DNA from: Alloalcanivorax mobilis
GTDB taxonomy: Bacteria; Pseudomonadota; Gammaproteobacteria; Pseudomonadales; Alcanivoracaceae
Direction of reading: 5' to 3'
DNA length: 64,000 nucleotides
NCBI RefSeq assembly: GCF_002864685.1
Contig: NZ_NMQZ01000030.1
Coordinates: 1 to 64,000, forward strand
In this document: positions 896 to 62,698 of the stretch, piece after piece
Layout of the letters: the number at the start of each line of letters is the position of its first letter
How positions within the stretch are numbered: the stretch's first letter is position 1
Made by a program: the position numbers and the translations under genes
The notes under the pieces: generated by a model
The model's input: the letters and a program-made list of their open reading frames with translations, nothing else
What the model was told of the DNA's origin: nothing
Databases searched by the model: none

Positions 896-1098
896 GTTGA
901 AAGTTAAAGGTTAAAAGTTAAAACGCGGGTGGGGCCAAGCGAGCCGGCCAGGCCGTGCCCGCGTTCTATGGGCTACAAGCTGCAAGCCTTAAACCAGGCC
1001 GGCCGCAGGCCGCGGCAGGGTCCCTCCGCCACGACCTTTCAACTTTTCACTTTTAACTTTGAACTGACCCTTTCCTGGCTTATAGCTTGCAGCTTGCC
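896..1098. repeat. Heptamer-array element, TTAAAAG type with nested GCTTGCA arms
   Basis: The left arm at 896-924 is made of GTTGAAAG and TTAAAAG words. The inverse right arm at 1035-1064 is made of CTTTTAA and CTTTCAAC words. A second nested pair, ACAAGCTGCAAGCC (974-987) and GCTTGCAGCTTGCC (1085-1098), is also built on a 7-nt period. The core between the arms closely resembles that of the element at 43282-43514. It fills the gap between two convergent genes and ends 4 nt from the stop of the acyl-CoA dehydrogenase. It may act as a bidirectional 3' end structure, which is an inference. Confidence 0.85.
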
Positions 1099-1102
1099 GC
1101 CC

Positions 1103-2782
1103 TCAAACCTCCAGCGGATTCGCCCGCCGTACCAACCCATCCACATCCACGCCGCGCGGCAGGCTGCCGTAGTTGCGGGCGTGGCCGCTGTCCAGGCGGG
1201 CGGTGATGAAGGCGTCGCTGACGGCGCTGTTGCCGGCTTTCACCAGTTGCGCGGCCTGCATGGTGAGCGCCATGCGATCCACCAGATCGCGGGCCCGGTA
1301 GGGCATGGCGTCGGAGTCCGCCAGTTCCTTTTTGAGCGCATTGATGGCTTTGTCGAGCACCGCGTTGCCGCCCTGGGCGCCGGCCAGCTCGGCGAACCAG
1401 GCGTCCAGCACTTTCGGGCTCTTGCCCATGGCGCGCAGCAGATCCAGCGCCTGGACATTGCCGGAGCCTTCCCAGATGGCGTTGATCGGCGCATCCCGGT
1501 ACAGCCGCGCGAGGATAAAGTTTTCGGTGACGCCGTTGCCGCCCAGGCACTCCATGCTTTCGTAGGCGTGGTGCGGGGTGCGTTTGCAGATCCAGTATTT
1601 GCCGACGGCGGCGCCCAGGCGCGCGAACAGTTTTTCGTGTTCGTCGTCCTGATGGTCCAGGGCCCGGGCCATGCGCCAGGTCATCGCCACCGAGCCTTCC
1701 ACTTCCAGTTGCAGGTCGGCGATCACGTTGCGCATCAGCGGCTGGTCCAGCAGGGTTTCGCCGAAGGCGGCGCGGTGCGCCACGTGGTGCACCGCCTGGG
1801 CCATCACCTGGCGCTGCCCGGACGACGAGCCGATCATGCAATCAAAGCGGGTCATCGCCACCATCTCGATGATCGCAGGCACGCCACGACCCTCTTCGCC
1901 CACCATCCAGCCGTGGGCGCCGCGCAGCTCCACCTCGGAAGAGGCGTTGGAGACATTGCCCACCTTGTTCTTCAGGCGTTGCACCTGCAGCGGGTTCTTG
2001 CTGCCGTCCTCGCGCCAGCGCGGCACCAGGAAGCAGCTCAGGCCGCCGGGAGTCTGCGCCAGCATCAGGAAGGCATCGCACATGGGCGCCGACATGAACC
2101 ACTTGTGACCGACCAGCTCATAGAGCTCACCGGGGCCCTCGGCGCCCACCGGGTAGGCGCGCGTGGTGTTGGCGCGCACATCCGAGCCGCCCTGCTTTTC
2201 GGTCATGCCCATGCCGATGGTCAGAGCCGGCTTGTCGTTATGGCTGACGTTGCGCGAATCGTAATCGCGGGCGGTGACCTTGGGCAGCCAGCGCTCGGCG
2301 ATGGCCGGGGTCAGTTTGAGGCTGGGCACGGCGGCGAAGGTCATGGTGATCGGGCAGCAGTGGCCGCCCTCCACCTGGGAGTGCAAAAAGTACTTGGCGG
2401 CCCGCGCCACCTGAGCGCCCGGGCCCGGGTCGGTCCAGGGCGAGGAGTGCAGCCCCTCGCGCAGGGCCATGTCCATCAGGTGGTGGTAGGCCGGGTGGTA
2501 GTTGACCCGATCCACACGGTGCCCATAGCGATCGTGGGATTCGAACTCGGGCTTATTGGCGTTGGCCTGGAAGCCCCACTCGATCACCTCCGGGCGGGTG
2601 GTTTCACGGCCATAACGGCTCAGCTCGTCGAGCGCCCAATCACCGCCTTCGCGGACCACCGCTTCCTTGAGCGCGGTGTCGCCGGTGAAGGCGTCGTAAT
2701 TTTCCAGCGGCGTGGCCTGGTTGAACACCTCGTGGGTGCTGGCCAGGGGCTCCAGATTCAGGTCGTCGTGCTTGGCGTTCAT
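1103..2782 (-). CDS. Acyl-CoA dehydrogenase, AidB type
   Basis: This 559-residue flavoprotein belongs to the AidB-like branch of acyl-CoA dehydrogenases; E. coli AidB has 541 residues. Visible family features are an N-terminal segment with DRYGHRVDRVNYHPAYH, the flavin-binding MTEKQGGSDVRAN motif, and a C-terminal LGGNGV with WEGSGNVQALDLLRA. AidB binds DNA and is induced by alkylation in E. coli, but many homologues sit in lipid-metabolism contexts. Here the gene overlaps the upstream DUF4442 gene by 4 nt and forms a three-gene operon with that gene and a TetR regulator, which favours a metabolic role. The substrate is unknown. Confidence 0.85.
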   Translation of the reverse strand: MNAKHDDLNLEPLASTHEVFNQATPLENYDAFTGDTALKEAVVREGGDWALDELSRYGRETTRPEVIEWGFQANANKPEFESHDRYGHRVDRVNYHPAYHHLMDMALREGLHSSPWTDPGPGAQVARAAKYFLHSQVEGGHCCPITMTFAAVPSLKLTPAIAERWLPKVTARDYDSRNVSHNDKPALTIGMGMTEKQGGSDVRANTTRAYPVGAEGPGELYELVGHKWFMSAPMCDAFLMLAQTPGGLSCFLVPRWREDGSKNPLQVQRLKNKVGNVSNASSEVELRGAHGWMVGEEGRGVPAIIEMVAMTRFDCMIGSSSGQRQVMAQAVHHVAHRAAFGETLLDQPLMRNVIADLQLEVEGSVAMTWRMARALDHQDDEHEKLFARLGAAVGKYWICKRTPHHAYESMECLGGNGVTENFILARLYRDAPINAIWEGSGNVQALDLLRAMGKSPKVLDAWFAELAGAQGGNAVLDKAINALKKELADSDAMPYRARDLVDRMALTMQAAQLVKAGNSAVSDAFITARLDSGHARNYGSLPRGVDVDGLVRRANPLEV

Positions 2783-3288
2783 GGTGCGCTCCTCCCCGAA
2801 GCGGGTGTGTGGTGGTCGCGTTTCTTACGGACGTACAGGGTTTTGCTCACCTCGGCCACGGTGTTACCGGCGCCATCACGCACCGTCACCGGCCAGGTGG
2901 GCAGGTACTTGTCGCCGCCAGCGGTGGCGGCTCTCACCTCGTTGAGCATCGCGTCGGTGAGTTCGAATTCGGCGAACACCCGGCCCTTGCCGGGGCTCAC
3001 GAAATCAATGCGGGCGCTCTGGTCCCAGACGATGTAATCGCCGCCCAGGTTGTTGATCAGCATCAGCATATAAAAGGGGTCGGTCATGCTGTACAGGCTG
3101 CCGCCGAAGTGGGTGCCCACATAGTTGCGGTTGTACCAGTGCATGCCCATGGAGACCCGCACGTAGCGGAAATCCTTGCTGAGCGTGTCGACGCGCACGC
3201 CGGCGCCCAGGAAAGGGCCGTACAACAACAGACCACGGCGCAGACCGGCGGCGCCGGAAAACAGTTTCCTCAGTGGATTGCCCATCAC
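2779..3288 (-). CDS. DUF4442 hotdog-fold protein, putative thioesterase
   Basis: This 169-residue protein has the DUF4442 pattern: a hydrophobic N-terminus, a central NRNYVGTHFGGSLYSMTDPFYMLM segment resembling the long helix of the hotdog fold, and a strand-rich second half. Relatives are grouped with PaaI-like acyl-CoA thioesterases. It sits between a TetR gene and an AidB-type dehydrogenase with 4-nt overlaps on both sides, so the three are almost certainly cotranscribed and translationally coupled. The inferred job is releasing or editing acyl-CoA intermediates of the dehydrogenase. Starts at Met1 and Met2 are equally possible. Confidence 0.75.
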   Translation of the reverse strand: MMGNPLRKLFSGAAGLRRGLLLYGPFLGAGVRVDTLSKDFRYVRVSMGMHWYNRNYVGTHFGGSLYSMTDPFYMLMLINNLGGDYIVWDQSARIDFVSPGKGRVFAEFELTDAMLNEVRAATAGGDKYLPTWPVTVRDGAGNTVAEVSKTLYVRKKRDHHTPASGRSAP

Positions 3289-6638: not shown

Positions 6639-6639
6639 C

Positions 6640-16958: not shown

Positions 16959-17139
16959 CGCCGGACGCTAAGATCAAAATCAAAACCGTCGCTGGCTGGA
17001 GCCGCTCCTACAAAAAGAACGATAACCGCTCTACAGGTCCGCTGTGGGAGTGGTCCTTGATCGCGAAATGTTTGGCCGGATCGCACGGTGCTTTTTGGCC
17101 TGAACCTGGTTATTTCGGCGTCCGGCGTCTGGCGTCTGG
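16959..17139. repeat. GCGTCTG-type heptamer element with leader and REP-like core
   Basis: CGCCGGACGC (16959-16968) is inverse to GCGTCCGGCG (17118-17127), which begins a run of three heptamers (GCGTCCG, GCGTCTG, GCGTCTG) ending 5 nt before the panB stop. Reading on the minus strand, the left arm is preceded by the leader GGTTTTGATTTTGATCTTA (16969-16987). That leader is also found before arrays at 21742, 29974 and 62653. Adjacent is a REP-like GTAGGAGCGGCTCCAGCC hairpin, and then CCTTGATCGCGAAATGTTT, found inverted at 21864-21882. Confidence 0.8.
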
Positions 17140-17143
17140 CCGA

Positions 17144-17929
17144 TCAACCGCGCGATCCGGTCATCCGAATAATGTTATTGGGAAACTCACGGGTCTCCAC
17201 TTCACGGCTGAACGCCTTGGCCACATCCGCAATCGAATCACTGACCCGGGCATACTGCTTCGAGAACGGTGGCCAGTAATCGCCCAGCCCGAGCGCGTCG
17301 TTGATCACCAGCACCTGGCCATCGCAGTCCGGGCCGGCACCAATGCCGATGGTGGGGATGCGCAGCGCGGCAGTGATCTCGCCAGCCAGATCGTAGGGCA
17401 TGTGCTCCATTACCAGCATAAAGGCACCGGCGCCCTGAATGCCTTGCGCTTCCTCGCGAATGCGTTGCGCGTCCTCCGCTCTGCGGCCCACCTTGGCGAA
17501 ACCCTTGGCGGTTTGCGGAAGCAAGCCGGTGTGTCCGACCACGTCGATGCCGTTGGCCACCAGGTGGGCGATCACCGCGTATTTATCGCCTTCCAGTTTG
17601 ACGCTGTCGGCGCCTGCCGCCAGCAGCCGCCGGGCGCTGGCCAGGGCGGTGTCCGGGTCGCGGTCGGTGCGGTACGGCAGATCGCCAATAATATGCGTGT
17701 CCGGCGCGCCCCGGCGTACCGCGCCGATGTGATACTCCATGTGCTCCAGGGTCACCTGGCGGGTGCTGTCGAAGCCCATCTCGACCATGCCCACGGTGTC
17801 GCCCACCAGCAGCACCGGCACGCCGGCCTGTTGCAGGCCGCGCGCCACCGGGCAGGTGTAGGCGGTCAGCATGGTGATCGGTTGCGAGCCTTTCATCATG
17901 GTGAAATCGGAAACCTGTTTTTTCGTCAT
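17144..17929 (-). CDS. panB: 3-methyl-2-oxobutanoate hydroxymethyltransferase (PanB)
   Basis: This 261-residue enzyme makes ketopantoate from 2-oxoisovalerate and methylene-tetrahydrofolate, the first committed step to pantothenate and CoA. The TIM-barrel metal ligands are visible as LLVGDTVGM, IIGDLPYRTD and SVKLEGD. Substrate-binding GHTGLLPQ and the C-terminal TIGIGAGPDCDGQVLV are also present. The length matches the family (about 263). panC and panD are not adjacent, so it may be a second panB copy; the TAYT and DLPY variants differ slightly from typical TAYD and DLPF. Confidence 0.93.
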   Translation of the reverse strand: MTKKQVSDFTMMKGSQPITMLTAYTCPVARGLQQAGVPVLLVGDTVGMVEMGFDSTRQVTLEHMEYHIGAVRRGAPDTHIIGDLPYRTDRDPDTALASARRLLAAGADSVKLEGDKYAVIAHLVANGIDVVGHTGLLPQTAKGFAKVGRRAEDAQRIREEAQGIQGAGAFMLVMEHMPYDLAGEITAALRIPTIGIGAGPDCDGQVLVINDALGLGDYWPPFSKQYARVSDSIADVAKAFSREVETREFPNNIIRMTGSRG

Positions 17930-21585: not shown

Positions 21586-21954
21586 CTGAAACCCTCAGGT
21601 GCGGGGCAGAAGCGCCTTGCCATTCGGCCAAAAGACGTCGCTGGCACGGCGGAACGCCGCCCGGCCTCTCCTACGCGGCCCTGTAGGAGGGGTTGGGTTT
21701 CTGTAGGAAAGGCTGGGCGGCACCCCGCCCAGCCAGCGACGGGTTTGATTTTGATTTTTGCGTCTGGCGTCTGGCGTCTGGCGTCTGGCGTCTGGCGTCT
21801 GGCGTCTGGCGCCCAGCCCTGAAACCCTCAGGTGCGGGGCAAAGACACCGTGCCATTCGACCAAAACATTTCGCGATCAAGGATCGCTCCCACGCGGCAA
21901 ACCCGGGTTTTGACTTTAGCGTGTTGCGTGTTGCGTGTTGCGTGCTGCGTGCAA
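21586..21954. repeat. Composite intergenic repeat region with two heptamer arrays
   Basis: This gene-free stretch between convergent rhlE and the transporter is almost all repeats. A 48-nt unit beginning CTGAAACCCTCAGGTGCGGG occurs at 21586-21633 and again at 21819-21866 with six mismatches. A perfect hairpin GGCTGGGCGG-CACC-CCGCCCAGCC lies at 21711-21734. The leader GGTTTGATTTTGATTTTTG precedes seven perfect GCGTCTG copies at 21760-21808. A second leader-like GGGTTTTGACTTTA precedes three GCGTGTT copies plus variants at 21919-21950. Two GTAGGAGG/GTAGGAAAG REP-like motifs are also present. Confidence 0.9.
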
Positions 21955-25763: not shown

Positions 25764-25785
25764 GGATGATCGCTGGGGATTATAG

Positions 25786-25934
25786 TTGAAAGTTAAAAGT
25801 TAAAAGTTGAACGCGACAAAGGCTACCGATGATTCACCGCCCTGACCCGCGATCAAGACGCCGCGAACGCGGCGATAACCTCTCGGCAGGCACAACCTGG
25901 TCCGCGTTTTAACTTTTAACCTTTAACTTTCAAC
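25786..25934. repeat. Inverted heptamer arrays, TTAAAAG type
   Basis: The left arm at 25786-25816 reads GTTGAAAG, TTAAAAG, TTAAAAG, TTGAACGCG. The right arm at 25903-25934 is its inverse (CGCGTTTTAA to CTTTCAAC). About 86 nt separate them. The element fills the gap between convergent genes and ends 3 nt from the phosphatase stop codon. Confidence 0.88.
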
Positions 25935-25937
25935 CTT

Positions 25938-27077
25938 CTAAGTCACCGTCCGCCGGCTTTCTTCGCGCACTTCGCCCAGCGCCTGCTCGCTGATAAAGCC
26001 CCGCTGGAAAGCGTGTTCGGCCATTGCCAGGCTGTCTTCGGCGAGCACCATTTCGCAATCGCTGGCGGCGACCTGTTCGGCCAGGGTTTGGATGTCGGTA
26101 TCGCGGTCCGGCCGGCTGTGCACGTGACGAATGTAGATGGCGCGAATGCGTCCCGGGTGTTCGGCGACGATCCGCGCGTACACTTCCGGGTCCTGTTGGC
26201 CGGAATCGCCGATCAGAATAAACGGCAACTGATCGTAGAGCGCCAGCATGCGCCGGATCAGCATCGCCTTGTGATCCTTGGCGCGGCGCGGCAGCGGCCG
26301 TTGCAGGGTGGCCCCCCATTCGCGCAGGAACAGGATCGGGCCATAGGGGATGCGTTGCAGATGGAAAAACTCCCCGAGCATTTCGTAAATGCTCCAGGGG
26401 CCCCGGGAGACGTAAAGAAGCGGCCGCCGGGCCTGGCCATCACCGCCATGAAACAGCCCTCGATAGAGCGCGGACACGCCGGGAAAGGCGGTGCGATGGC
26501 GGGCCTTTTGCACGAACAGGCGATACATCATTTTCAGTTTACTGGCCACGCCGGTGTAAATGACGGTGTCGTCGATGTCACTGATGACGCCCAGGTCCAC
26601 CTCTTCAGCGGGAATAAAGATCTGCGCCGACGCCCACGGCAACGAGTGTGACGCCGGCGGCGGCTGGCCCCGAGGGTGCCCGGCGGGCAGCAGGGTCAGC
26701 TCGGCGCGCTGCCAGAACGCGCCCGCCGGCAGTTGGCTTTCGATGTCCAGGTGCACGCTGAAATAGCCGTCCGAATCGGTGACCACTTCGGTTTCGACCC
26801 GCCCTACCCGCACCCACACGCGCTGGTCCCGCACGCCCCAGCGCACCGTGCGGCGCACGATATTGACCAGATCGTCCACCGGCCCGGGCAGCTTCAAGCC
26901 GAGGCCCGGCTGCAGAAACACCCGTCCCATCAAAAAGCATTCCGAGCGTGAGCCGTAACCCCGATAGGTATGAATAACCCGGCCGCCACCCCGGCCACCG
27001 CGCCGCGCCGGCGCGGCCAGAAAACGAAGCAACTTCCGCAAACCGCGATACAAGGCTCGCGGGGTTGGCAGCATCAT
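25938..27077 (-). CDS. App1-like phosphatidate phosphatase domain protein (DUF2183)
   Basis: This 379-residue protein carries a DUF2183 domain in its C-terminal half with the HAD-like motif SDIDDTVIYTG near residue 180, then YVSRGPWSIYEML and the GDSGQQDPE motif. Yeast App1 with this domain dephosphorylates phosphatidate. An N-terminal basic, Gly-rich region precedes a beta-rich domain. Bacterial members are uncharacterised, but lipid phosphatase activity is likely. I choose the ATG at 27077 because GGAG lies 5 nt upstream. A TTG further upstream runs into a repeat array. Confidence 0.8.
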   Translation of the reverse strand: MMLPTPRALYRGLRKLLRFLAAPARRGGRGGGRVIHTYRGYGSRSECFLMGRVFLQPGLGLKLPGPVDDLVNIVRRTVRWGVRDQRVWVRVGRVETEVVTDSDGYFSVHLDIESQLPAGAFWQRAELTLLPAGHPRGQPPPASHSLPWASAQIFIPAEEVDLGVISDIDDTVIYTGVASKLKMMYRLFVQKARHRTAFPGVSALYRGLFHGGDGQARRPLLYVSRGPWSIYEMLGEFFHLQRIPYGPILFLREWGATLQRPLPRRAKDHKAMLIRRMLALYDQLPFILIGDSGQQDPEVYARIVAEHPGRIRAIYIRHVHSRPDRDTDIQTLAEQVAASDCEMVLAEDSLAMAEHAFQRGFISEQALGEVREESRRTVT

Positions 27078-27095
27078 CGGGACTCCATAAGCCAA

Positions 27096-27272
27096 GTTGA
27101 AAGTTACAGGTTAAAAGTTAAAACGCGGTTCGAGTCAGTGCCTGCTAATGGGCCTTCAGCCGCGCCGCCACCGAAGCGTAATGACCGCGGGCACGGCGAT
27201 CAATTCAGCCCCACCTATGCCTCGTTCAACTTTTAACTTTTAACTTTTTTCTTCTAACCTTTAACTTTTCCG
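27096..27272. repeat. Inverted heptamer arrays, TTAAAAG type
   Basis: The left arm at 27096-27126 is GTTGAAAG, TTACAGG, TTAAAAG, TTAAAACGCGG. The longer right arm at 27224-27272 repeats AACTTTT with variants. The unit sits between two minus-strand genes, 12 nt from the stop of the AstE-like gene and 19 nt upstream of the App1-like start. It would be transcribed as a long imperfect hairpin. Confidence 0.85.
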
Positions 27273-28357: not shown

Positions 28358-28401
28358 CGACTGCCCACGACTCATGTTTTCGCTGTTTTTCGTTTTTCGC
28401 T

Positions 28402-28423
28402 ATCAACTGTCAACTGCTAACCG
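28402..28423. repeat. Short TCAACTG heptamer array, single arm
   Basis: TATCAACTGTCAACTGCTAAC contains TCAACTG, TCAACTG and a degenerate third word on a 7-nt period. It is the same word family as the array at 45010-45118. It lies 2 nt from the rimK stop codon, and I see no inverse arm. Confidence 0.6.
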
Positions 28424-28424
28424 C

Positions 28425-29764: not shown

Positions 29765-29870
29765 CGAGGATTCCTGTCTCGCCTTAGGTCAGCGAAAAAC
29801 CACTTTCAAGCAGACTACACAGCCCCAGTGACAGGAACCAGACGCTTCAACGGGATTTTATAAAGGGGAA

Positions 29871-30025
29871 CGCTGGACGCTGGACGCTAGACGCCGGACG
29901 CTGAAAAAAACGCGAACATCGAGCGTTGCGGCTCCGCAAGTGCGTTTTGCGCAGCCGCAAGGCCAGCAGGCCCGGGTTTTGATCTTAGCGTCCGGCGTCC
30001 GGCGTCCGGCGTCTAGCGTCCAGCG
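29871..30025. repeat. Inverted heptamer arrays, GCGTCCG type, mirrored irregular words
   Basis: The left arm (29871-29905) is CGCTGGACGCTGGACGC followed by TAGACGCCGGACGCTGAA. The right arm (29987-30025) is four to five GCGTCCG/GCGTCTA/GCGTCCA words. The order of variant words, including the rare TAG-containing one, is preserved in mirror image. The right arm is preceded by the leader GGTTTTGATCTTA (29975-29987) and ends 4 nt from the argG stop. The core also holds GTTGCGGCTCCGCAA. Confidence 0.88.
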
Positions 30026-30029
30026 CCCC

Positions 30030-33902: not shown

Positions 33903-34001
33903 ACTGAAAACCCCGCGTTATGAATAGTGTTTTCAAAATCCTATAGCGGATTTTTTCCTCTGGCCAATCGTGTTTCTGGATGCTTTGGTACAGTAGGCTT
34001 C

Positions 34002-34066
34002 AAGCCTCAAGCCTCAAGCCTCAAGCGTCTGGCGTCTGGCGTCTGGCGTCTGGCGTCTGGCGTCCA
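34002..34066. repeat. Adjacent heptamer arrays: AAGCCTC then GCGTCTG
   Basis: Three AAGCCTC copies (34002-34022) run directly into five perfect GCGTCTG copies and a GCGTCCA variant (34025-34066). Two unrelated words are joined on the same 7-nt phase except for a 2-nt junction. No inverse arm is present. It lies just downstream of the peroxiredoxin terminator. Confidence 0.88.
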
Positions 34067-34094
34067 CCAGACTCCCCCATCCGTGAACAACCAT

Positions 34095-38412: not shown

Positions 38413-38535
38413 CCGGCGCCCTCACCGCGCCCCCTGGCCCGGGCCGCATTGCGCCGCCACCGCCGGGCCAGTATTATTCGGGGTCCACTCGGCAGCTCCG
38501 GCTGCCGTTTTTTGTTTCTGCCAATGTTGGAAGAC

Positions 38536-39717: not shown

Positions 39718-40634
39718 GCCACACCAGCACCCGCCATTTTCTGACCTTGCTCGACCTGTCCCCGAAGGAGCTTGGTTATTTGATTCAGCGCGCGGTGGAA
39801 TTGAAAACCATGCAGCACACCGGCCAGTTCCATGAGCCGCTGCGTGGCCAGACGCTGGGCATGATTTTCGAAAAGTCCTCCACCCGCACCCGGGTCTCGT
39901 TCGAAGTGGCGATGACCCAGTTTGGTGGCGCTAGCATTTTTCTCTCCACCCGCGACACCCAGTTGGGTCGCGGCGAGCCGGTGGAAGACTCCGCCCGGGT
40001 GCTCTCGCGCATGGTCGACGCGGTGATGATCCGCACCTTCGACCACGCCGTGGTCGAAGCCTTCGCCCAGTACTCCCGGGTGCCGGTGATCAACGCCCTC
40101 ACCGATCAGTTCCACCCCTGCCAGCTGCTCGCCGACATGCAGACCTTCGTCGAGCATCGTGGCAGCATCCAGGGCCGCAAAGTGGCCTGGGTAGGCGACG
40201 GCAACAACATGTGCGCCAGCTACATCAACGCTGCCCGCCAGTTTGATTTCGAGCTGCTGATCGCCTGCCCGGACGGCTTCGAGCCGCCCGCCGATCTGGT
40301 CGCCGGCGACAGCGACCGGGTCACCCTGGTGCGCGACCCCCGCGCCGCCGTGGAAGGCGCCCACCTGGTGGTCACCGACGTCTGGGCCTCGATGGGGCAA
40401 GAGGAAGAGCAAGCGGAGAGAATTCGCAAGTTCACCGACTATCAGGTCAACCCGGCCCTGATGGACCTGGCCGACCCCGAGGCCCTGTTCATGCACTGCC
40501 TGCCCGCGCACCGCGGCGAGGAAGTCAGCACCGAAATGATGGACGACCCCAGATCGGTGGTCTGGGACGAAGCCGAAAACCGCCTGCACGCCCAGAAAGC
40601 GCTGCTCGAGTTTTTGCTCGCCGGGCAGCATTGA
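39714..40634 (+). CDS. argF: Ornithine carbamoyltransferase
   Basis: This 306-residue enzyme makes citrulline from ornithine and carbamoyl phosphate. The carbamoyl phosphate loop [10 protein letters not shown] is near residue 54, HPCQLLAD near residue 135, and the ornithine motif HCLPAHRG near residue 260. It is translationally coupled to argD. Citrulline then feeds argG elsewhere in the window. Confidence 0.96.
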
Positions 40635-40686
40635 AGCCGGGGGAACGGATGCCGTGCCTGCAGGAAGGCTGAACTCCGTAGGCAGC

Positions 40687-40831
40687 GGCTGCAAGCTCCA
40701 AGCTTCAAGCTCCAAACTTCAGCCCGGGTTTAAGCTTGTAGCTTGCAGCTTGTCGCCCTTGTCAACGAAGCACGGCGTCCCCGCGCTGCACGGCCTAACC
40801 TGTTCCCTTCAACCTGTTGCCTGTTCCTGCG
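40687..40831. repeat. Heptamer arrays, GCAAGCTT type plus CCTGTTC type
   Basis: GGCTGCAAGCTCCAAGCTTC and following words (40687-40720) are inverse to TAAGCTTGTAGCTTGCAGC (40731-40757). A separate array of CCTGTTC/CCCTTCA/CCTGTTG words spans 40798-40828 and runs into the diguanylate cyclase gene. That gene's final residues QEQATG and its TGA are made of array words. It fills the convergent argF-cyclase gap. Confidence 0.85.
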
Positions 40832-43030: not shown

Positions 43031-43281
43031 AAGGTTACTCTCAGGGCCGGTTCAAAATCGCGCTCACGTCCCCCACGCGAACGTCGATGCCGACCGCCCT
43101 TTGGTAATGTTATGGCTATTGCGCTGCAAAGCGGCGACGGCGGACGACCGGTCGTCGCTGAGATAATAATCAAAAATGTGCTTCAATTCACACTTTTGCC
43201 TGAATCGGCACGCCCAGCCCCCCGCTGCAAGCTGCAAACTGACTGTGCTGGAAGAAGCGCCGTGCCGTGGGCAAGGTGCTA
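43031..43281. promoter_or_regulatory. Promoter region of the tandem cyclases
   Basis: No gene is seen. Two symmetrical motifs stand out: a perfect 14-nt palindrome GACGACCGGTCGTC (43143-43156), and AAAAATGTG (43172-43180) opposite CACACTTTT (43189-43197), in an AT-rich patch that suits a promoter or operator. They are candidates for a regulator site. Heptamer repeats begin immediately after. Confidence 0.4.
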
Positions 43282-43514
43282 GTTGAAAGTTAAAAGTGAA
43301 AAGTGAAAACGCGGGCGGGGCCCACAAGACGGCAAGGCCGTGCCCGCGCTTCAGGGAGTTCAAACCCGCGTTGATCTTCCAAGGCCGTAGGCCGTGGGAA
43401 GGCGTTTCGGCTACGACCTTTTAACTTTTAGCCTTTAACTTTCAACGGGCTCTTGACCGGCACGGCCCCTCCGCCACGATGCCCTGGCTTGCAGCTTGCA
43501 GCTTGAAGCTTCAA
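43282..43514. repeat. Heptamer element, TTAAAAG type, homologous to 896-1098
   Basis: The left arm 43282-43312 (GTTGAAAG, TTAAAAG, TGAAAAG, TGAAAACGCGG) and right arm 43417-43446 (CCTTTTAACTTTTAGCC, CTTTCAAC) flank a core also found at 896-1064: CGCGGG-GGGGCC, AGGCCGTGCCCGCG and CGACCTTTT are shared. The array at 43486-43514 (GGCTTGCAGCTTGCAGC, then TTGAAGC) runs into glpK, whose TGA stop lies inside the word. Confidence 0.88.
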
Positions 43515-44992
43515 TCCGAACAAACCCGCTTCACCGCCGCCCGCCAGCCCTGATAACGGCGCTCGCGCTCGCTTTCCTGCAACGCCGGTTCGAAAGCCCG
43601 TTCACACAACCACTGGCCGGCGATGTCGTCCAGGCTCTGGTACAGGCCACAGCCGAGCCCGGCCAGATACGCCGCGCCCAGGGCGGTGGTTTCGGTGACG
43701 CCGGGGCGGTCCACGCGCACGCCCAGCACATCCGCCAGGGTCTGGCTGAGCCAGTTGTTGACCACCATGCCGCCGTCCACCCGCAACGTGGTCGGCCGTT
43801 GCTGGCAGTCCGCCGCCATCGCTTCCAGCAGATCACGGGATTGGTAACACACCGCTTCCAAACCGGCGGTGACCACCTCGGCGATGCCGGTGTCGCGGGT
43901 CAGCCCGAGCAGCGCACCGCGCGCGTTCGGGTCCCACCAGGGCGCGCCCAGCCCGGTGAAGGCGGGCACCAGATACACGCCCCCGGCGGAACCCACGCGC
44001 CGCGCCAGGGCCTCGGTTTCGCTGGCGTGGGAAATCAGATTGAGGCCATCGCGCAACCATTGAATGGCGGCGCCAGCGACGAAAATCGAACCCTCCAGCG
44101 CGTAGGTGGTGACGCCGTTCAGGCGATAGGCCACGGTGGTCAGCAGCCGATTCTCGGACACCACCGCCTCGCCGGTATTGATGATCATGAAACACCCGGT
44201 GCCGTAGGTGCTTTTCACCATCCCTGGCTGGAAACAGGCCTGGCCCACCAGCGCCGCCTGCTGATCGCCGGCGATGCCACACACCGGCACCGCCGCGCCC
44301 AGCAGCTCCGGCGCGCTGGCGCCGAAGCGCCCGGCGCTGTCGCGCACCTCCGGCAACAGCGATTCAGGAATGTCGAACAGCGTCAGCAGCTCCGCGTCCC
44401 ATTGCTGGCTGTGGATATTGAACAACAGCGTGCGCGAGGCGTTGGTGGCGTCGGTGGCGTGCACCCGGCCCTGGGTAAGCTTCCACAGCAGCCAGCAATC
44501 GATGGTGCCGAACGCCAGTTCACCAGCGTCGGCGCGGGCCCGCGCGCCGTCCACGTGATCCAGCAGCCAGGCCAGTTTGGTGGCGGAAAAATAAGGGTCC
44601 AGCAGCAGGCCGGTGCGCTCGCGCACGCGCTCCTCGTGGCCGTCCTCTTTCAGGCGCCGGCACAGTTCGGCGGTGCGACGGTCTTGCCAGACAATCGCCC
44701 GGGCCAGTGGTTCACCGGTGCGGCGGTCCCACAGCACCGTGGTTTCGCGCTGATTGGTAATGCCGATCGCCGCCAGTTGGTCGGCCTCCACATGGGCGTT
44801 GCGCAGCGCCTGGCGGCACACCGCCAGGGTGTCGTTCCAGATCTCCGAGGCATCGTGTTCCACCCAGCCATCGGCGGGAAAATGCTGACGGAATTCCTTC
44901 TGGGCCTGGCCCTGAGCCACCCCCGCCTGGTCGAACACAATGGCGCGGGAACTGGTGGTGCCCTGGTCGATGGCAAGAATGTAGGACGGCAT
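43511..44992 (-). CDS. glpK: Glycerol kinase
   Basis: This 493-residue FGGY-family kinase phosphorylates glycerol to glycerol 3-phosphate. [13 protein letters not shown] at residues 8-20 binds phosphate, and [12 protein letters not shown] with [12 protein letters not shown] is typical of GlpK. Its start is [11 protein letters not shown]; the open frame upstream of it is made of repeat words. No glpF or glpD is adjacent. The stop codon sits inside a heptamer array. Confidence 0.94.
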
Positions 44993-45009
44993 AAGAAACA
45001 CCAAATACA

Positions 45010-45118
45010 GTTGAGAGTTGACAATGGACAGTTGACAGCGGGCCCTCGAAGCAGTGGACAGAACGGCTTTCAAGCCGGCCCTCTTTTTGCTGTCAACTGT
45101 CCACTATCAACTGTCAAC
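45010..45118. repeat. Inverted heptamer arrays, TTGACAG type, mirrored irregular word
   Basis: The left arm (45010-45038) is GTTGAGA, GTTGACA, ATGGACA, GTTGACAG. The right arm (45090-45118) is CTGTCAA, CTGTCCA, CTATCAA, CTGTCAAC. The irregular CCA-containing word occupies the matching mirrored place in both. The core holds CGGCTTTCAAGCCG and a TTTTT run. The arm provides the last codons KVDS and the TGA of the histidine kinase. Confidence 0.9.
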
Positions 45119-46741
45119 TTTATATTTTCTTTCCCGCCCCAACACATGCGACTGGCGTTGTTCGCGGGGCAGAATGACACGAAACCGCGCGCCGCCCCAA
45201 TCGCTCTGTTCGACGCGGATTTCGCCGCCGTGCCAATCGACAATACGCTTGACGATGGACAAGCCCAAACCGTATCCGCCGCTGGCGCGGTGCCGGCTTT
45301 TATCGAGGCGCGCGAAGGGTTTGAATACCCGCTCGCGATGGTGCTCGGCGATGCCCGGGCCGTCGTCGTCCACGTCCAGCACCAACCGCCCCTGGTCTTC
45401 ACTGATCGTCATGCGCACCCGGCCCTTGGCGTAGCGCAACGCATTGGTGACCAGGTTCTGAAGCACTCGGTGCAGGTAACGCGGGTCTCCCTCCAGAGTA
45501 GCGCCACGGTCGCCGCGCGCATCGATCACGATGTCGCCGCGGATCGTCTCCAGCTCGCCAATCAGCTGTTCGCACACTTCGTACAGATAAACGTCCTGGA
45601 AATCGATATTCGGCGTGCCCTCTTCCAGGCGCGCATAGGTCAGGATCTCGTCGATCAGATGGTCGAGCTGCTCGATGTCGCGATCCAGATCATTGAGTTT
45701 GCCGCGCCGTTCGTCGGCGGATTCGCAGTCGGCGAGCATTTCCAGGCCAAAGCGCAGGCGCGCCACCGGCGTGCGTAATTCATGGGACACCGCCCGGGTC
45801 ATTTCACGCTGGGCTTCGATCAACCGGCGGATGTGCGCGGTCATGCCATTGAACGCGGCGCCCACCTGGCCAATCGGGTCACTGCCCGGGATGTCCGCGT
45901 GGGCGCTGAGATCACCGCTGCCAAGCCGGTTCACGGCATGGTCAAGACGGCGCAAACGCCGTTGCAGAGGGCGCACCTGCATATAGGTGGCCAGCGCCAC
46001 CAGCACCAACGCGGCGACGCCGGCAATGGCCAGTAATTGCCAGGGAAACTGATCGAACAGGTGCAACGGCCCCATCACCAGCACCCGGCCGCTGTCGCCC
46101 ATCGGCACGTACAGCAACACACTGGCGTCGCGGCGGGTGCTGTCGGTGAGGGTAAACACCATCTCCTGACGCTCCAGCCGCTGGCGCTGATCCAGATCGA
46201 GCATCAGTTGCCCGGCGCCGACCAGATCCAGAGGAAAACCGAACTCCTGCTTAAGCCGCTCGAGTGCGCGCTCCTGCTGCGCCGCCGGTCGGCGCGACAA
46301 ATACTCCAGCACCAGCGCTCCGGTGGCGCGCGCCTGCTGTTCCGAGAGCCGCGTCACCCGGGTGCTCAGATACAGCGGTTGGCCCTGCACGGCATAGAGC
46401 ACCTGGGTGGCGCCGCTGTCATTGGCCGGGCGCATCACCACCCGCCCCTCGTCCAGGTGCAGTTTTTCCCGGTAAGAGAGTTTCAGTGCGTCTTTATCGA
46501 GCAGTTCCACGGCGGCGCCCATCATGCGGCTGAGCAGCCGGGTCCAGGCGTCCCGGTCGGCGGCACTGGCGCGGTCCTGGTAGCCTTCCGCCAACAGATA
46601 GAAAGTGCCGCGGGCCATGCGCTCGCGGTAAAGCTGGGAACGGTAGTCGTTGACCAGTTCAACGCCGGCATAGGTGAGCGCGCCGATCACCAGCAAGGCC
46701 ACCAGAATGCCGCCGTAAATGCGGATGAAGATGCTGTTCAC
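45107..46741 (-). CDS. Sensor histidine kinase, RstB-like
   Basis: This 544-residue sensor has a membrane segment at residues 5-25, a periplasmic domain to about 225, a second membrane segment and a HAMP domain. The H-box AVSHELRTPVARLRF has the phosphorylated histidine. The ATP-binding domain has LQNLVTNALRYA (N box), DDDGPGI (G1) and GGYGLGLSI (G2). The start is a GTG after GGAGAGG. The response regulator lies 46 nt upstream. Its last four residues and stop are in a heptamer array. Confidence 0.9.
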   Translation of the reverse strand: MNSIFIRIYGGILVALLVIGALTYAGVELVNDYRSQLYRERMARGTFYLLAEGYQDRASAADRDAWTRLLSRMMGAAVELLDKDALKLSYREKLHLDEGRVVMRPANDSGATQVLYAVQGQPLYLSTRVTRLSEQQARATGALVLEYLSRRPAAQQERALERLKQEFGFPLDLVGAGQLMLDLDQRQRLERQEMVFTLTDSTRRDASVLLYVPMGDSGRVLVMGPLHLFDQFPWQLLAIAGVAALVLVALATYMQVRPLQRRLRRLDHAVNRLGSGDLSAHADIPGSDPIGQVGAAFNGMTAHIRRLIEAQREMTRAVSHELRTPVARLRFGLEMLADCESADERRGKLNDLDRDIEQLDHLIDEILTYARLEEGTPNIDFQDVYLYEVCEQLIGELETIRGDIVIDARGDRGATLEGDPRYLHRVLQNLVTNALRYAKGRVRMTISEDQGRLVLDVDDDGPGIAEHHRERVFKPFARLDKSRHRASGGYGLGLSIVKRIVDWHGGEIRVEQSDWGGARFRVILPREQRQSHVLGRERKYKVDS

Positions 46742-51124: not shown

Positions 51125-51204
51125 AGACGCCGGACGCTTGACGCCAGACGCGAGACGCCAAACCCGCTTTTAAAGCGTCCGGCGTCAGGCGTCCAGCGTC
51201 AGGC
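51125..51204. repeat. Inverted heptamer arrays, GCGTCNG type, between nrdA and nrdB
   Basis: The left arm (51125-51159) is built of GACGCCG/GACGCTT/GACGCCA-like words, and the right arm (51172-51204) is GCGTCCG, GCGTCAG, GCGTCCA, GCGTCAG. The core has CCCGCTTTTAA. It starts directly after the nrdA stop and ends 62 nt before nrdB, so it could form a hairpin in the nrdAB transcript and alter the ratio of the subunits. Confidence 0.85.
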
Positions 51205-51265: not shown

Positions 51266-52558
51266 ATGCTGAGCTGGGACGATTTTCATGCGCAAGAGAC
51301 GCCCATCCACAAGCAGCCCGGCGGCGCGCAACCAACGCCACCGCAATCTGAGCCGCTATCTGAGAAAGCGGCACCTGCACCTCAAGCACCGGCAGCGGGA
51401 AGTGCAGCGGATGATCAATCTGGACGAGGACAATCACCCGGACGATCCAACGCCGCCGTGACCGACGCCGTGGTGCGCGCCCAGCAGGCGGTCGCGGAGA
51501 TGGACATCAGCGAAGGGGTGGCGGAGCTGGAAGGCACCGCCGGCCGCGTCGAGGTGGACGACAAGCGCATGATCAACTGCCGCGCCGACCTCAACCAACT
51601 GGTGCCCTTCAAATACGACTGGGCCTGGCAGAAATACCTGGACGGCTGCGCCAACCACTGGATGCCCCAGGAAGTAAACATGAACGCCGATCTGGCGTTG
51701 TGGAAAAAAGAAGACGGCCTCACCGACGACGAACGCCGCATCGTCAAGCGCAACCTGGGCTTCTTCTCCACCGCCGACTCCCTGGTCGCCAACAACCTGG
51801 TGCTGGCCATCTACCGGCTGATCACCAATCCAGAGTGCCGCCAGTACATTCTGCGTCAGTCCTTCGAAGAGGCGATCCACACCCACGCCTACCAGTACTG
51901 CATCGAATCCCTGGGCATGGACGAAGGCGAGATCTTCAACATGTACCAGGAGATCCCCTCGGTGGCCAAGAAAGCCCAGTGGGGCATTGAGTACACCCGC
52001 GAGATTTCCGACCCGGCTTTCACCACCGGCACCCCGGAAACCGACAAAGCGCTGTTGCAGAACCTGATCGCGTTCTACTGCGTGCTGGAAGGGATTTTCT
52101 TCTACTGTGGCTTCACCCAGATTCTCTCCATGGGCCGCCGCAACAAAATGACCGGCGTCGCCGAGCAGTTCCAGTACATCCTGCGCGACGAATCCATGCA
52201 CGTGAACTTCGGCGTCGACGTGATCAACCAGATCAAACTGGAAAACCCGCAACTGTGGGACCAGCAAATGCGCGACAAAGCCACCCAGATGATCCTGGAA
52301 GGCACCGAGCTGGAAATCCAATACGCCCGCGACACCATGCCGCGCGGCGTGCTCGGCATGAACGCCGCGATGATGGAAGAATACCTGCAGTTCATCGCCA
52401 ACCGCCGCCTCACCCAGCTCGGCCTGCCCGAGCAATTCAAGGGCGTCACCAACCCCTTCCCCTGGATGAGCGAGATCATGGATCTGCGCAAAGAGAAAAA
52501 CTTCTTTGAAACCCGGGTCACCGAATACCAGGTCGGCGGCGCGCTGAGCTGGGATTAA
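51266..52558 (+). CDS. nrdB: Ribonucleoside-diphosphate reductase class Ia, beta subunit
   Basis: This 430-residue subunit carries the di-iron tyrosyl radical. The iron ligands fall in [11 protein letters not shown] and DESMHVNFG, and the C-terminal tail is ...[11 protein letters not shown], which docks into NrdA. An unusual, low-complexity N-terminal tail of about 65 residues rich in Ala, Pro, Ser and Gln ([20 protein letters not shown]) precedes the core. The ribosome site is GGAGAAG. NrdA and NrdB are separated by a heptamer array. Confidence 0.95.
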
Positions 52559-52565: not shown

Positions 52566-52638
52566 GGCTACAAGCGACAAGCTGCAAGCGGGACCACCTC
52601 TCTGGAAGTGCTTCACTTGCGGCTTGCGACTTGCGGCC
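52566..52638. repeat. Inverted heptamer arrays, CAAGCNN type
   Basis: GGCTACAAGCGACAAGCTGC (from 52566) is inverse to GCTTCACTTGCGGCTTGCG (52610-52638). Repeat words CAAGCGA, CAAGCTG, CAAGCGG occur on a 7-nt period. It lies 8 nt after nrdB and 67 nt before the next gene. Confidence 0.78.
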
Positions 52639-52942: not shown

Positions 52943-53107
52943 GCGCTGGCGCGCGCTTCAAGCTTCAAGCTTCAAGCTTAAGTCAAAACCCGCCTCTGAC
53001 AGCTTTGCGGCTACGCATAAGCCAGTTTGCGTGAGTCCCAGGATGAAAAGGCCGGCACGCTTGAAGCTTGAAACCTGAAGCTTGAAGCGCGCTGCGCGCC
53101 AGCGCCA
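52943..53107. repeat. Inverted heptamer arrays, TTCAAGC type
   Basis: The left arm has GCGCTGGCGCGCGC followed by three perfect TTCAAGC copies (52957-52977). The right arm (53059-53107) is the inverse: CGCTTGAAGCTTGAA, then GAAGCTTGAAGCGCGC and GCGCGCCAGCGC. Outer GC-rich arms are also complementary. About 76 nt separate the arms. Nothing coding is seen between this element and the next gene; 53170-53180 (TTATAG) may be a -10 site. Confidence 0.88.
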
Positions 53108-54908: not shown

Positions 54909-55021
54909 GTGTTCAGTGTTCAGTGTTCGCGGGTACCGCCTTTCGGCGGTACCCGCGCCCGCCGCAACTCACCCGATACCGTGGCCTCCGCGAACGCGCA
55001 CTGAACACTGAAAACTGAAAA
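54909..55021. repeat. Inverted heptamer arrays, GTGTTCA type, with strong hairpin
   Basis: GTGTTCA, GTGTTCA, GTGTTC (54909-54928) is inverse to TGAACAC and ACTGAAA words (55002-55021). GCGGGTACCGCC and GGCGGTACCCGC (54929-54956) form a perfect 12-bp stem with loop TTTC just inside. It lies in the convergent gap and ends 3 nt from the next gene's stop. No U-tract follows the hairpin. Confidence 0.88.
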
Positions 55022-55024
55022 CCC

Positions 55025-55918
55025 CTACCTCCTCATCCTTTCCCAATCCGCCCCCGGATATGGCGCCACGAACGATTCCACCGCGCCCCGTTTGTCCAGG
55101 GTCACGAACACCCGCCGGCCGTCCTCGCCACCGAAGGTGAGATTGGTGGGATAGCGCCCTTTCAGGGGCACGCTGCGCAGCCATTTGCCCCGCGGCGACA
55201 CCACCGCCAGCTCCCCGGCGCCGTAGCGCGCCACGTAAAGATTGCCGCGCACGTCGGCGCGCAGGCCATCCAGGCCGTGCCCTTTGAATTCAATCAGCAC
55301 CCGGCCACCGCTGAGGCCGGCATCGGCGCCCACATCAAACACCCGTATGCGGCGTTGGCGGGTCTCCGCCACATAGAGCCGGCGGCCATCCGGGCTCAGG
55401 GCAATGCCATTGGCGGTGCCCAAACCGTCGGCCACCACCCGCGTCCGGCCGTCCGCGCTCACGTACCAGACGCGGCCGCTGCCGCTGCGCCAGTCGGGGT
55501 CGCTGGCGTACACGCCGCCGTCGGCGGCCAGGGTGAGATCGTTGGGCTGGTGCATGCGCGGTTCATGCACCCAGACACTCACCGATTGGTCCGCCGGGTC
55601 GATGCGCAGAATATTGTGGCCACGGTGGTCGGCGGCGTACAACCGGCCATCCCGGCCAAAGCGCAAACCGCTGGCCACGCTGCCCGCCGGCAGCGTCAGG
55701 AACAGGCGCGCCTTGCCCTGGCCAGAGACCCGGCCGATGGTGCCCGGCCGGGCAAAGTTGACCACGTAAAGCGCACCGTCCGGGCCCACCGCCGGCCCTT
55801 CGATGCCCCTCGGAAAGACCCCCTCACCGACCCAGTCGCGGCTCGCCGGTGGCGCCGCCTGGCCGGCGCCGGCCGCCAGCATCAACACCACCACGCACCC
55901 GCGTTCAACCCTGCCCAT
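55025..55918 (-). CDS. SMP-30/gluconolactonase-like beta-propeller, secreted
   Basis: This 297-residue protein starts with a signal peptide (GCVVVLMLAAGAGQAA, cleavage likely near residue 22) and has six-bladed propeller repeats typical of SMP-30/Gnl and NHL families, such as IEGPAVGPDGALYVVNFA and HQPNDLTLAADGGVYASDPDW. It is likely periplasmic and may hydrolyse a lactone. The substrate is unknown. It converges with the AlsS-like gene. Confidence 0.85.
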   Translation of the reverse strand: MGRVERGCVVVLMLAAGAGQAAPPASRDWVGEGVFPRGIEGPAVGPDGALYVVNFARPGTIGRVSGQGKARLFLTLPAGSVASGLRFGRDGRLYAADHRGHNILRIDPADQSVSVWVHEPRMHQPNDLTLAADGGVYASDPDWRSGSGRVWYVSADGRTRVVADGLGTANGIALSPDGRRLYVAETRQRRIRVFDVGADAGLSGGRVLIEFKGHGLDGLRADVRGNLYVARYGAGELAVVSPRGKWLRSVPLKGRYPTNLTFGGEDGRRVFVTLDKRGAVESFVAPYPGADWERMRR

Positions 55919-61913: not shown

Positions 61914-62112
61914 AGCGGGCTACCTGCAAAGGGCTTCACCCGTAGCGGGCGACGTTTCCCGCAGTATAGGGGTTGGCGCGCGCGGCGCCAGTGCACGGCT
62001 TGCCAACACCAGCGCCGACCGCGATAGTGGCCACTGAACCCGGACAGGCGCGCGCACGCCGCGCCCAGGCGAAGAGAAAGAAGCCCGCCACCCACCGACA
62101 AGGACTGCCGCC

Positions 62113-62544
62113 ATGACACCGAAATCGCTCGCCCTGCTGCTCAGCCTCGCCGCCCTGCCTGCCTTCGCCCAAGCCGACGACTACCTCGAACCGGGCCAAT
62201 GGAAACAAACCATCCAGGCCAGCCAGCCCGGCGGGCAAGCGATGCCGGCGCGCACCATGAACCGCTGCCTCAGCGCCGCCGACGTCGCCGACCTGCGCGG
62301 CGCCCTCACCAACAATCAGCAAAGTGGCTGCCAGGTGGACGACTACCAGCGCAACGGCAATCAAGTGAACTGGACGGTGAGCTGCAACGGCGAACCGGCC
62401 AGCGTCACCCACGGCGAAATGACCCGGCAAAGCCCACGCGCCTACCGCATCAACCTGGAGGTCGCCACTACCGTGCAAGGCGAAACCCGCACCACTCAAG
62501 TGCAAGGCCAGGCGGAACGGATTGGCGACTGTCCGAAAGAATAG
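62113..62544 (+). CDS. DUF3617 domain periplasmic protein
   Basis: This 143-residue protein has a signal peptide (LALLLSLAALPAFAQA, cleavage near residue 21) and a DUF3617 pattern: LEPGQWKQTI, a first cysteine in NRCLSA, SGCQVDDY, and a WTVSCNGEP segment, ending GDCPKE. Four cysteines may form two disulfides. The function is unknown. Confidence 0.8.
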   Translation: MTPKSLALLLSLAALPAFAQADDYLEPGQWKQTIQASQPGGQAMPARTMNRCLSAADVADLRGALTNNQQSGCQVDDYQRNGNQVNWTVSCNGEPASVTHGEMTRQSPRAYRINLEVATTVQGETRTTQVQGQAERIGDCPKE

Positions 62545-62548
62545 AGGT

Positions 62549-62698
62549 TCAGTTTTCAGTCGGGCCGCTGCCGGCCTGCCCTACGCGGCGCTGTAGAGGG
62601 AGCGTGTTTTTTTGTAGGAGAGGCAGGGCGGCGTTCCGCCCAGCCAGCAACAGGTTTGATTTTGATCTTGGCGTCCGACGTCCGACGTCCGACGTCCA
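62549..62698. repeat. Composite repeat region with CGTCCGA heptamers
   Basis: TTCAGTTTTCAGTC (62549-62562) is a 2-word array. A hairpin GGCAGGGCGG-CGTT-CCGCCCAGCC (62622-62645, one mismatch) precedes CAGCAACAGG and then the leader GGTTTGATTTTGATCTTGG (62653-62671). Three CGTCCGA copies and a CGTCCA (62672-62698) follow, ending 4 nt from the aldolase stop. The hairpin and leader closely match those at 21711-21760. Confidence 0.88.

What the first reader, a model, noticed from the sequence alone, without database searches (positions are those of the whole stretch)
896..62698. A family of 7-nt-word arrays at about sixteen intergenic sites
Sites at about 0.9, 17.1, 21.8, 25.8, 27.1, 28.4, 29.9, 34.0, 40.7, 43.3, 45.0, 51.1, 52.6, 53.0, 54.9 and 62.6 kb all use words with period exactly 7: TTAAAAG, GCGTCTG, GCGTGTT, AAGCCTC, TTCAAGC, TTGACAG, GTGTTCA, CGTCCGA. 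Aligned on one strand the words fit a loose pattern (KYRNNNK). The word changes from site to site, but period, intergenic placement and usual inverted layout stay the same. That argues for one process making arrays rather than chance low complexity. Cyanobacterial heptamer repeats (STRR) are an analogue, but I know of no described mechanism for a word-diverse inverted family like this.
Basis: partly seen in the sequence, partly recalled or inferred. Interest (0 to 1): 0.85.

Follow-up and report, generated by a model that had tools for sequence, protein, structure and literature searches.

The report
Palindromic intergenic elements with heptamer arms
The many 7-letter tandem arrays between genes of this bacterium are mostly the two inverted arms of small hairpin-shaped DNA elements that have been copied around the genome and sit just after genes; they resemble heptamer repeats already described in Xanthomonas, but here come in many related words.

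Summary
In detail: 957 kb of this Alloalcanivorax-like genome hold 131 intergenic period-7 arrays, against 5 of period 6 and 3 of period 8. They are not independent. Neighbouring arrays in one spacer face each other in 46 of 49 cases, never the reverse, with one word family in 42 of 46 (11.7 expected), mostly around a 36-119 bp core. Cores are dispersed copies: two loci share 181 bp at 95% without flanking match, and 17 of 19 GCGTC-class cores match another. Relatives show presence or absence of whole elements, different words in one slot, a core inverted in place, one arm longer alone, and 8-nt units on the same core. So these are palindromic interspersed repeats with slippage-prone heptamer arms, placed at gene ends. 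Signs of RNA-pairing selection were not found, and copies sit inside nrdA-nrdB and purH-purD pairs. The mobiliser is unknown. Closest known: inverted GGGAATC arrays of Xanthomonas (PMC4692102); the word-diverse, core-bearing form is a new variant.

The parts
894..925 (-). left arm, T-word (AAAGTTA) array, 3' of the + gene ending at 880
971..988 (-). short left-type CAAGC stretch between the T arms
   Evidence: read by eye; below the array threshold
1034..1066 (+). right arm, AACTTTT array
1076..1100 (+). right-type GCTTGCA array
17113..17144 (+). lone right-type GCGTC array against the stop of the minus gene 17144-17929
21755..21817 (+). right-type GCGTCTG array, about 7 perfect units
21914..21954 (+). 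right-type GCGTGTT array against the stop of the minus gene 21963-23258
25780..25814 (-). left arm, T-word; slot 174 bp here, 4 bp without array in G001 and G003
25905..25938 (+). right arm, T-word
27094..27124 (-). left arm, T-word; slot and word also in G001, G002, G003
27222..27269 (+). right arm, T-word
28400..28424 (+). lone right-type AACTGTC array (weak); the flanking genes overlap by 4 nt in G001, G003 and G012 by my gene calls
29865..29903 (-). left arm, GACGCTG (GCGTC family)
29904..29984 (.). core with inner TTGCGGCTCCGCAA palindrome and CCGGGTTTTGA end
29985..30029 (+). right arm GCGTCCG, ending at the stop of the argininosuccinate synthase gene; CAGGAT-word arrays in the same slot in G002 and G003
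33994..34068 (.). left-type AAGCCTC array fused in phase to right-type GCGTCTG array, no spacer
40687..40721 (-). left arm CAAGC; slot 174 bp here, -10 to 25 bp in G001, G003, G011, G012
40729..40756 (+). right arm GCTTG
43221..43241 (-). left-type CAAGC array (outer pair, weak)
43277..43312 (-). left arm, T-word (inner pair)
43416..43446 (+). right arm, T-word
43484..43516 (+). right-type GCTTGCA array (outer pair)
45007..45038 (-). left arm GTTGACA
45090..45121 (+). right arm AACTGTC
51125..51163 (-). left arm GACGC, immediately after the ribonucleotide reductase large-chain gene (nrdA-type, ends 51124)
51173..51204 (+). right arm GCGTC, before the small-chain gene 51458-52558
52567..52591 (-). 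left arm CAAGC (weak)
52614..52638 (+). right arm GCTTG
52951..52984 (-). left arm TTCAAGC
53057..53089 (+). right arm GCTTGAA
54906..54932 (-). left arm GTGTTCA, just after the stop at 54903
54996..55024 (+). right arm ACACTGA, against the stop of the minus gene 55025-55918
62668..62703 (+). lone right-type CGTCCGA array against the stop of the minus gene 62703-63707

Best explanation
The arrays are mostly the arms of a multi-family set of small (about 70-250 bp) non-coding palindromic interspersed elements: [array in L-form] - core - [array in R-form]. SHOWN: arms and core belong together, GCGTC-class cores are dispersed copies, whole elements are present in one species and absent at the same slot in another, arms differ in unit number independently, and a core can lie in either orientation between its arms at one locus. 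INFERRED: new copies arrive by duplicative insertion (mobiliser unknown) or by ectopic conversion into existing elements; copies survive mainly between a stop codon and the next RBS or stop, which puts arms against stop codons and keeps them out of divergent promoter regions; 7- or 8-nt replication slippage then lengthens, shortens and homogenises each arm, and point changes in the word spread within an array, giving diverse but linked words. Lone arrays are taken as remnants of such elements. Any effect on the host (mRNA 3' end protection, weak termination) would be secondary.
For: Polarity and pairing: 46 of 49 consecutive arrays L to R, 0 R to L; 42 of 46 of one family, 11.7 expected. Lone arrays within 30 nt of a stop: 22 L-form, 3 R-form; in IGRs with two or more arrays 55 to 0. 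Core motif GTGTTT[CTA]CTG in 464 kb: 18 copies, 17 intergenic, 17 within 100 bp of an array. Copies: L238 and L249 181 bp at 95%, no flanking match of 60 bp or more; 17 of 19 GCGTC and 8 of 23 T spacers match another spacer, 0 for shuffled or random segments; core pairs at 91-92% in inverted orientation. Presence/absence: one slot 174 and 4 bp, another 206, 145 and 6 bp; purH-purD slot 13 bp in G011 and three different word families in G012, G001 and G003/G002. In-place core inversion at an orthologous locus, G005 against G008, 92% over 129 bp. One-arm difference at an orthologous locus, G003 9 and G012 2 left units, right arms 4 and 4 (units counted by eye; orthology). Location: convergent 32 of 81, co-directional 43 of 320, divergent 7 of 132 IGRs of at least 40 bp hold arrays; in 464 kb the distance to a stop has medians 5-18 nt, to a start 50-92 nt.
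Against: No target-site duplication could be defined, because even the nearest 'empty' sites have diverged, hold remnants or hold other palindromes. No mobiliser: RAYT matches number 2-5 in each of 13 same-genus genomes whatever the array load; within 1.5 kb of the three G000 RAYT matches only one array was found; only two consecutive L-R arrays lie 300-4000 bp apart in 957 kb, around ribonucleotide reductase and FMN reductase genes. 15 of 23 T-class spacers match no other spacer, so copying is shown mainly for the GCGTC class. 36 of 83 array-bearing spacers hold a single array. Stop-codon contact and reuse of one slot by different words look tighter than random insertion plus purging would give; I did not compute that expectation.
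Confidence: 0.65

Rival explanations
1. Selected 3'-end RNA hairpins (bidirectional terminators or exonuclease barriers); the arrays are a cheap way to keep a long stem.
For: Convergent IGRs enriched, arms touch stop codons; 45 hand-picked pairs fold to -33 to -125.5 kcal/mol, no shuffle control made; at the argG slot and a convergent slot, relatives without the element have other palindromes.
Against: Stem mismatches read in the mRNA sense, 31 co-directional pairs: G.U 26, A.C 30 (p=0.69); 23 convergent pairs 13 and 24 (p=0.10), so no wobble excess (one search had pooled these two classes by a script slip: 39 and 54). Within a family, own arms match no better than other sites' arms for T words (p=0.69), weakly for GCGTC (0.08) and GCTTG (0.011). 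Elements sit inside nrdA-nrdB and purH-purD pairs. Strictly defined intrinsic terminators in 3 of 82 array IGRs and 20 of 451 others.
Confidence: 0.2
2. REP-type elements mobilised by the resident RAYT (Y1 transposase).
For: Palindromic, dispersed, extragenic; PF01797 matches in all 13 same-genus genomes searched.
Against: RAYT number does not follow array load; the G000 RAYT genes are not bracketed by elements. The GTAG foot of REPs (recalled) was not tested systematically.
Confidence: 0.12
3. Pure replication slippage favouring 7-nt units, as proposed for heptamer excess in other bacteria (Mrazek and colleagues, as told in the introduction of PMC4679880).
For: Period 7 dominates; unit-number differences between orthologues.
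Against: Does not explain inverted pairing, fixed polarity, shared cores or whole-element presence and absence; the same core class carries 8-nt units.
Confidence: 0.05

Closest known systems
GGGAATC heptamer arrays of Xanthomonas campestris/axonopodis (PMC4692102; abstract and sections 10, 13, 14, 16 read)
   Same: Heptamer arrays, 89-93% intergenic, many inverted pairs, close to stop codons, few between divergent ORFs, unit number variable between relatives.
   Different: One main word there, at least eight word families here; no conserved core is mentioned in the sections read; 83% of Xcc repeats keep their gene context in Xac, whereas here presence varies strongly within the genus; only 2 of 38 majority words here contain GGG on either strand, so quadruplexes are not the common feature.
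TAACTGA direct repeats of marine Beggiatoaceae (PMC4679880; abstract, introduction and section 8 read)
   Same: Intergenic heptamer arrays; AACTGA-type words also occur here.
   Different: One word, mostly just upstream of start codons, one indirect repeat only; here at stop codons and inverted.
Cyanobacterial STRR heptamer repeats (recalled; only a search listing seen)
   Same: Several heptamer words in one genome, intergenic (recalled).
   Different: Inverted core-bearing elements are not recalled for STRRs; not tested.
REP/BIME and MITE-like elements (recalled)
   Same: Small, palindromic, dispersed, non-coding, extragenic.
   Different: Arms are tandem heptamer arrays; no target duplication and no matching transposase found.

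Membership tests
Xanthomonas-type inverted heptamer arrays | tandem 7-nt units, intergenic | tested here: met
Xanthomonas-type inverted heptamer arrays | inverted pairs near stop codons, rare between divergent genes | tested here: met
Xanthomonas-type inverted heptamer arrays | GGGAATC word with G-tracts for quadruplexes | tested here: not met
   GGGAATC is not among the 38 words of 140 arrays; 2 words contain GGG
REP elements mobilised by RAYT | elements flank the cognate RAYT gene | tested here: not met
   within about 1.5 kb, L146 and L150 no array, L162 one array 5' of the gene
REP elements mobilised by RAYT | element load follows RAYT content | tested here: not met
MITE | dispersed copies with unrelated flanks | tested here: met
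   mainly for the GCGTC class
MITE | target-site duplication and an autonomous parent | tested here: inconclusive
   no clean empty site; no parent among consecutive L-R arrays in 957 kb
intrinsic terminators | GC stem followed by a U tract | tested here: not met
   3 of 82 array IGRs under a strict definition; (looser, window 25001-45000): 21 sites, shuffles mean 18.9, two of them inside elements (29926-29939, 43310-43326)
slippage-only simple repeats | arrays independent of each other and of flanking sequence | tested here: not met

The most novel reading that the evidence does not exclude
A new class of mobile palindrome whose ends are rebuilt by templated short-repeat addition (7 or 8 nt, word set by an enzyme or guide and changeable over evolution), so that word switching in one slot reflects re-templating of arms around a core rather than separate insertions.
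Probability: 0.07. Interest if true: 0.85.

Novelty: new variant of a known kind. Interest (0 to 1): 0.52.

Why it matters
Heptamer excess in bacteria has been noted in print without a settled mechanism (PMC4692102, PMC4679880). Here it is tied to a concrete unit (core plus inverted arms) whose presence, absence, orientation and arm length differ among species of one genus, so the origin of such arrays and their effect on gene ends become testable. It also warns that 'simple repeats' in bacteria can be the arms of dispersed elements.

Tried and rejected
Template-switch copying between arms (quasipalindrome correction) as the source of arm likeness: own arms hardly beat other sites' arms within a family, and arm lengths are not clearly correlated (rho 0.22, p=0.10). 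RNA-level selection by wobble bias: none (which corrects, where convergent pairs had been counted with the co-directional ones by a script slip). RAYT mobilisation: no support. Known RNA family: none in the window at gathering score. Plasmid or phage carriage of the GCGTC element L249:721-900: no match in either collection (BLAST's low-complexity filter was on, so this is weak). Autonomous parent between array arms: two candidates, both ordinary genes. Intrinsic terminators: not enriched. An attC-like reading of the GCTTAAC...GTTAAGC core ends was considered and dropped: most cores seen read GCTAAAC, which does not fit the recalled attC consensus; no integrase search was made.

Controls and limits: the pair set (59 pairs, used) required a complementarity score, so its family agreement is biased; the unbiased count is that. 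The family orientation label was set from observed right arms. Gene calls are from my own simple caller, not an annotation. The reference word was chosen from the data; the fairer test is the network test. In one search two spacers (window 43.2-43.4 kb) overlap each other. One search used 29 distinct cores found in G000 DNA held then, out of 34 genome sites; the sites fetched were not added. The reversed-pattern control is high (0-82 matches) because T-words are partly self-similar.

Literature: the listings of eight searches (Alcanivorax named in 43 and 74) showed no paper on these elements in Alcanivorax or relatives within that library.
Full report
What was checked. Tandem Repeats Finder lists period-7 arrays at every one of the sixteen named sites, and the printed sequence agrees. 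A plain lag detector gives 16 period-7 arrays in the window at 13/14 identity and none at periods 4, 5, 8, 10, 11 or 13; periods 6, 9, 12 and 15 give 1, 3, 1 and 1, and period 14, the double of 7, gives 7. In the window plus 400 kb of the same genome 101 intergenic and 4 coding period-7 arrays stand against 4/31 for period 6 and 2/1 for period 8, with a mean of 0.8 in first-order Markov versions. In 957 kb the counts are 131/9, 5/69 and 3/2.

Organism. The window is G000 contig C24. The nearest named relatives of one window protein are Alloalcanivorax and Alcanivorax records at 68-70% identity; twelve same-genus genomes were found. The name Alloalcanivorax-like rests on these calls, not on a species match.

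Anatomy. 11 of the 16 window sites show inverted pairs; 17.1, 28.4 and 62.6 kb are lone arms, 21.8 kb has two same-oriented arrays, and 34.0 kb is a fused left and right array. In the 957-kb sample 46 of 49 consecutive arrays in one intergenic region run L to R, 2 run L-L, 1 R-R and none R to L; 42 of 46 L-R neighbours share a word family, 11.7 expected. The orientation label of each family was set from observed right arms, so the meaning lies in its consistency over all sites. Lone arrays near stops keep the polarity, 22 L-form to 3 R-form. Of 83 array-bearing spacers 45 hold two arrays, 36 one and 2 three. In 59 pairs the distance between arms is 36-119 bp in 47, shorter in 8 and longer in 4. 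45 hand-picked pairs fold as hairpins of -33 to -125.5 kcal/mol; no shuffle control was made. The core has recurrent parts: TAAACCCG...CGGGTTTA ends with an inner GTGTTTNCTG...CAGNAAACAC palindrome, a TTGCGGCTNCGCA palindrome, or CGCGGGCACGG...CCCGCG. In 464 kb the motif GTGTTT[CTA]CTG occurs 18 times, 17 intergenic, 17 within 100 bp of an array. Genome-wide the palindrome pair occurs at 34 places in G000, 8 in G012, 3 in G003, 1 each in G005 and G008, and nowhere in the other 20 of 25 genomes tried.

Words. The 38 distinct majority words of 140 arrays are linked: 28 form one network of single substitutions, against a mean of 6.9 and a maximum of 17 in 100 letter-shuffled sets. Word load differs greatly between species. 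Four GCGTCNN units in a row: 486 matching places (overlaps counted) in G000 and at most 4 in any of the other 228 genomes drawn from the class, 5 of which have any; the same-genus genomes were not in that draw, and G012 does carry GCGTC-armed elements. AACTTTN three times with up to one mismatch: 187 in G000, 66 in G001, 176 in G002, 140 in G003, 12 in G011, 3 in G012, 35 in G019, 16 in G024 and 0 in the other 22 of 30; the reversed control pattern gives 49, 18, 82, 31, 7, 2, 22 and 6 in these eight, so the counts are inflated by partly self-similar words. In samples of other same-genus genomes at 13/14 identity arrays are few: G005 0 in 100 kb, G011 0 in 100 kb, G006 0 in 40 kb, G010 1 in 100 kb, G004 1 in 60 kb.

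Place. Of intergenic regions of at least 40 bp, 32 of 81 convergent, 43 of 320 co-directional and 7 of 132 divergent ones hold arrays (convergent against divergent p=6e-10, co-directional against divergent p=0.013). In the first 464 kb (62 regions) the array edge lies a median 5-5.5 nt from the stop codon in co-directional and 9-18 nt in convergent regions, and 50-92 nt from start codons.

Elements are copied. Among 29 distinct palindrome cores in G000 DNA one pair is 99% identical (L238, L249); the match covers 181 bp at 95%, arms included, with no flanking match of 60 bp or more. The next thirteen pairs are 85-92%, several in inverted orientation, two of them about 0.9-1.1 kb apart; the median over all pairs is 69%. 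17 of 19 GCGTC-class spacers, 8 of 23 T-class, 3 of 4 GCTTG and 1 of 3 ATCCTG spacers match another spacer at E up to 1e-3; shuffled and random genomic segments give none. A few cores match across word families (T with GCTTG, GCTTG with GCGTC, T with ATCCTG), so words and cores are not rigidly bound (one of these is an overlap of two listed spacers).

Presence and absence. In the syntenic block around the APP1-like and argG genes the 25.8-kb slot measures 174 bp with arrays in G000, 4 bp in G001 and G003 by my gene calls, and holds AACTATT/AACTATC-type arrays in G004, G009 and G010. The 27.1-kb slot holds T-words in G000, G001, G002 and G003, and is 6 bp in G012. The slot after argG holds GCGTC in G000, CAGGAT words in G002 and G003, and other sequence, partly palindromic, elsewhere. 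Short array-like remnants can be seen at some 'empty' sites, for example G011 and G001 at 25.8 kb, so some absences may be losses. In the nrdA-nrdB spacer G003 and G012 have GCGTG-type arms that G001 lacks. In a second block the purH-purD spacer (Pfam: AICARFT/IMPCHase and GARS) is 13 bp in G011 and holds a GCGTG-type hairpin in G012, CAGGAT words in G001 and T-words in G003 and G002. In another slot of G012 the element replaces the end of the upstream reading frame, whose stop now lies in the array (read by eye).

Arms and cores change separately. At the orthologous locus L222/L226 (about 91% identical on both sides) G003 has 9 left units and G012 2, while both right arms have 4 (counted by eye). 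At L215/L219 (88% overall) the core is inverted in place between G005 and G008: 129 bp match in reverse at 92%, flanks in the same orientation. The same core class carries 7-nt units in some loci and 8-nt units in L222, L226, L228 and L225.

Function. Three tests give no sign of selection for RNA pairing: sense-strand mismatches G.U 26 and A.C 30 in 31 co-directional pairs and 13 and 24 in 23 convergent pairs, arms hardly more similar to their own partner than to other arms of the family (T p=0.69, GCGTC 0.08, GCTTG 0.011), and no enrichment of strictly defined terminators. The 51.1-kb copy lies between the large- and small-chain genes of ribonucleotide reductase and another between purH and purD; a strong terminator there would be costly unless the second gene has its own promoter, which was not tested. 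What speaks for a function is the repeated use of the same slots and the presence of other hairpins at some slots where the element is missing. I therefore favour tolerated interspersed elements with at most secondary effects.

Known or new. The nearest described thing is the GGGAATC repeat of Xanthomonas: 186 and 183 arrays, 70 and 75 cases of inverted pairs, near stop codons, few between divergent ORFs, the majority transcribed in Xac (PMC4692102, abstract and sections 10, 13, 14, 16). TAACTGA repeats (PMC4679880) share the unit length but not the place or layout. What is added here is the variety of linked words, the shared and copied core, whole-element presence and absence, in-place inversion, and units of 8. 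Hence 'new variant of a known kind'.

Weak points. No mobiliser, no target duplication, copying shown well only for the GCGTC class, many lone arrays, own gene caller, unnamed relatives, about a quarter of the genome sampled, and no expression data.

Noticed in passing
window 894-1100 and 43221-43516; L265 8313-8570; G000 C56 14266-14434: T-word and GCTTG-word arrays recur together, interleaved (A B A' B') or nested, in G000 and in G002. Interleaved arms cannot all pair at once, so two exclusive hairpins are possible.
   Followed up: partly
L215 and L219: Core of an element inverted in place between two related genomes while the flanks keep their orientation.
   Followed up: yes
L222, L226, L228, L225: Same core class with arms of 8-nt units, CACGCTTG and relatives.
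   Followed up: partly
L267 19871-19933: About nine units of CGAGTTT in a genome of another genus of the family.
   Followed up: no
L276 2935-3285: In G011 (and alike in G003) a different large inverted repeat and a REP-like ATCGCGGCTGAAGCCGCTCCTACA palindrome occupy the convergent slot where G012 has the heptamer element.
   Followed up: no
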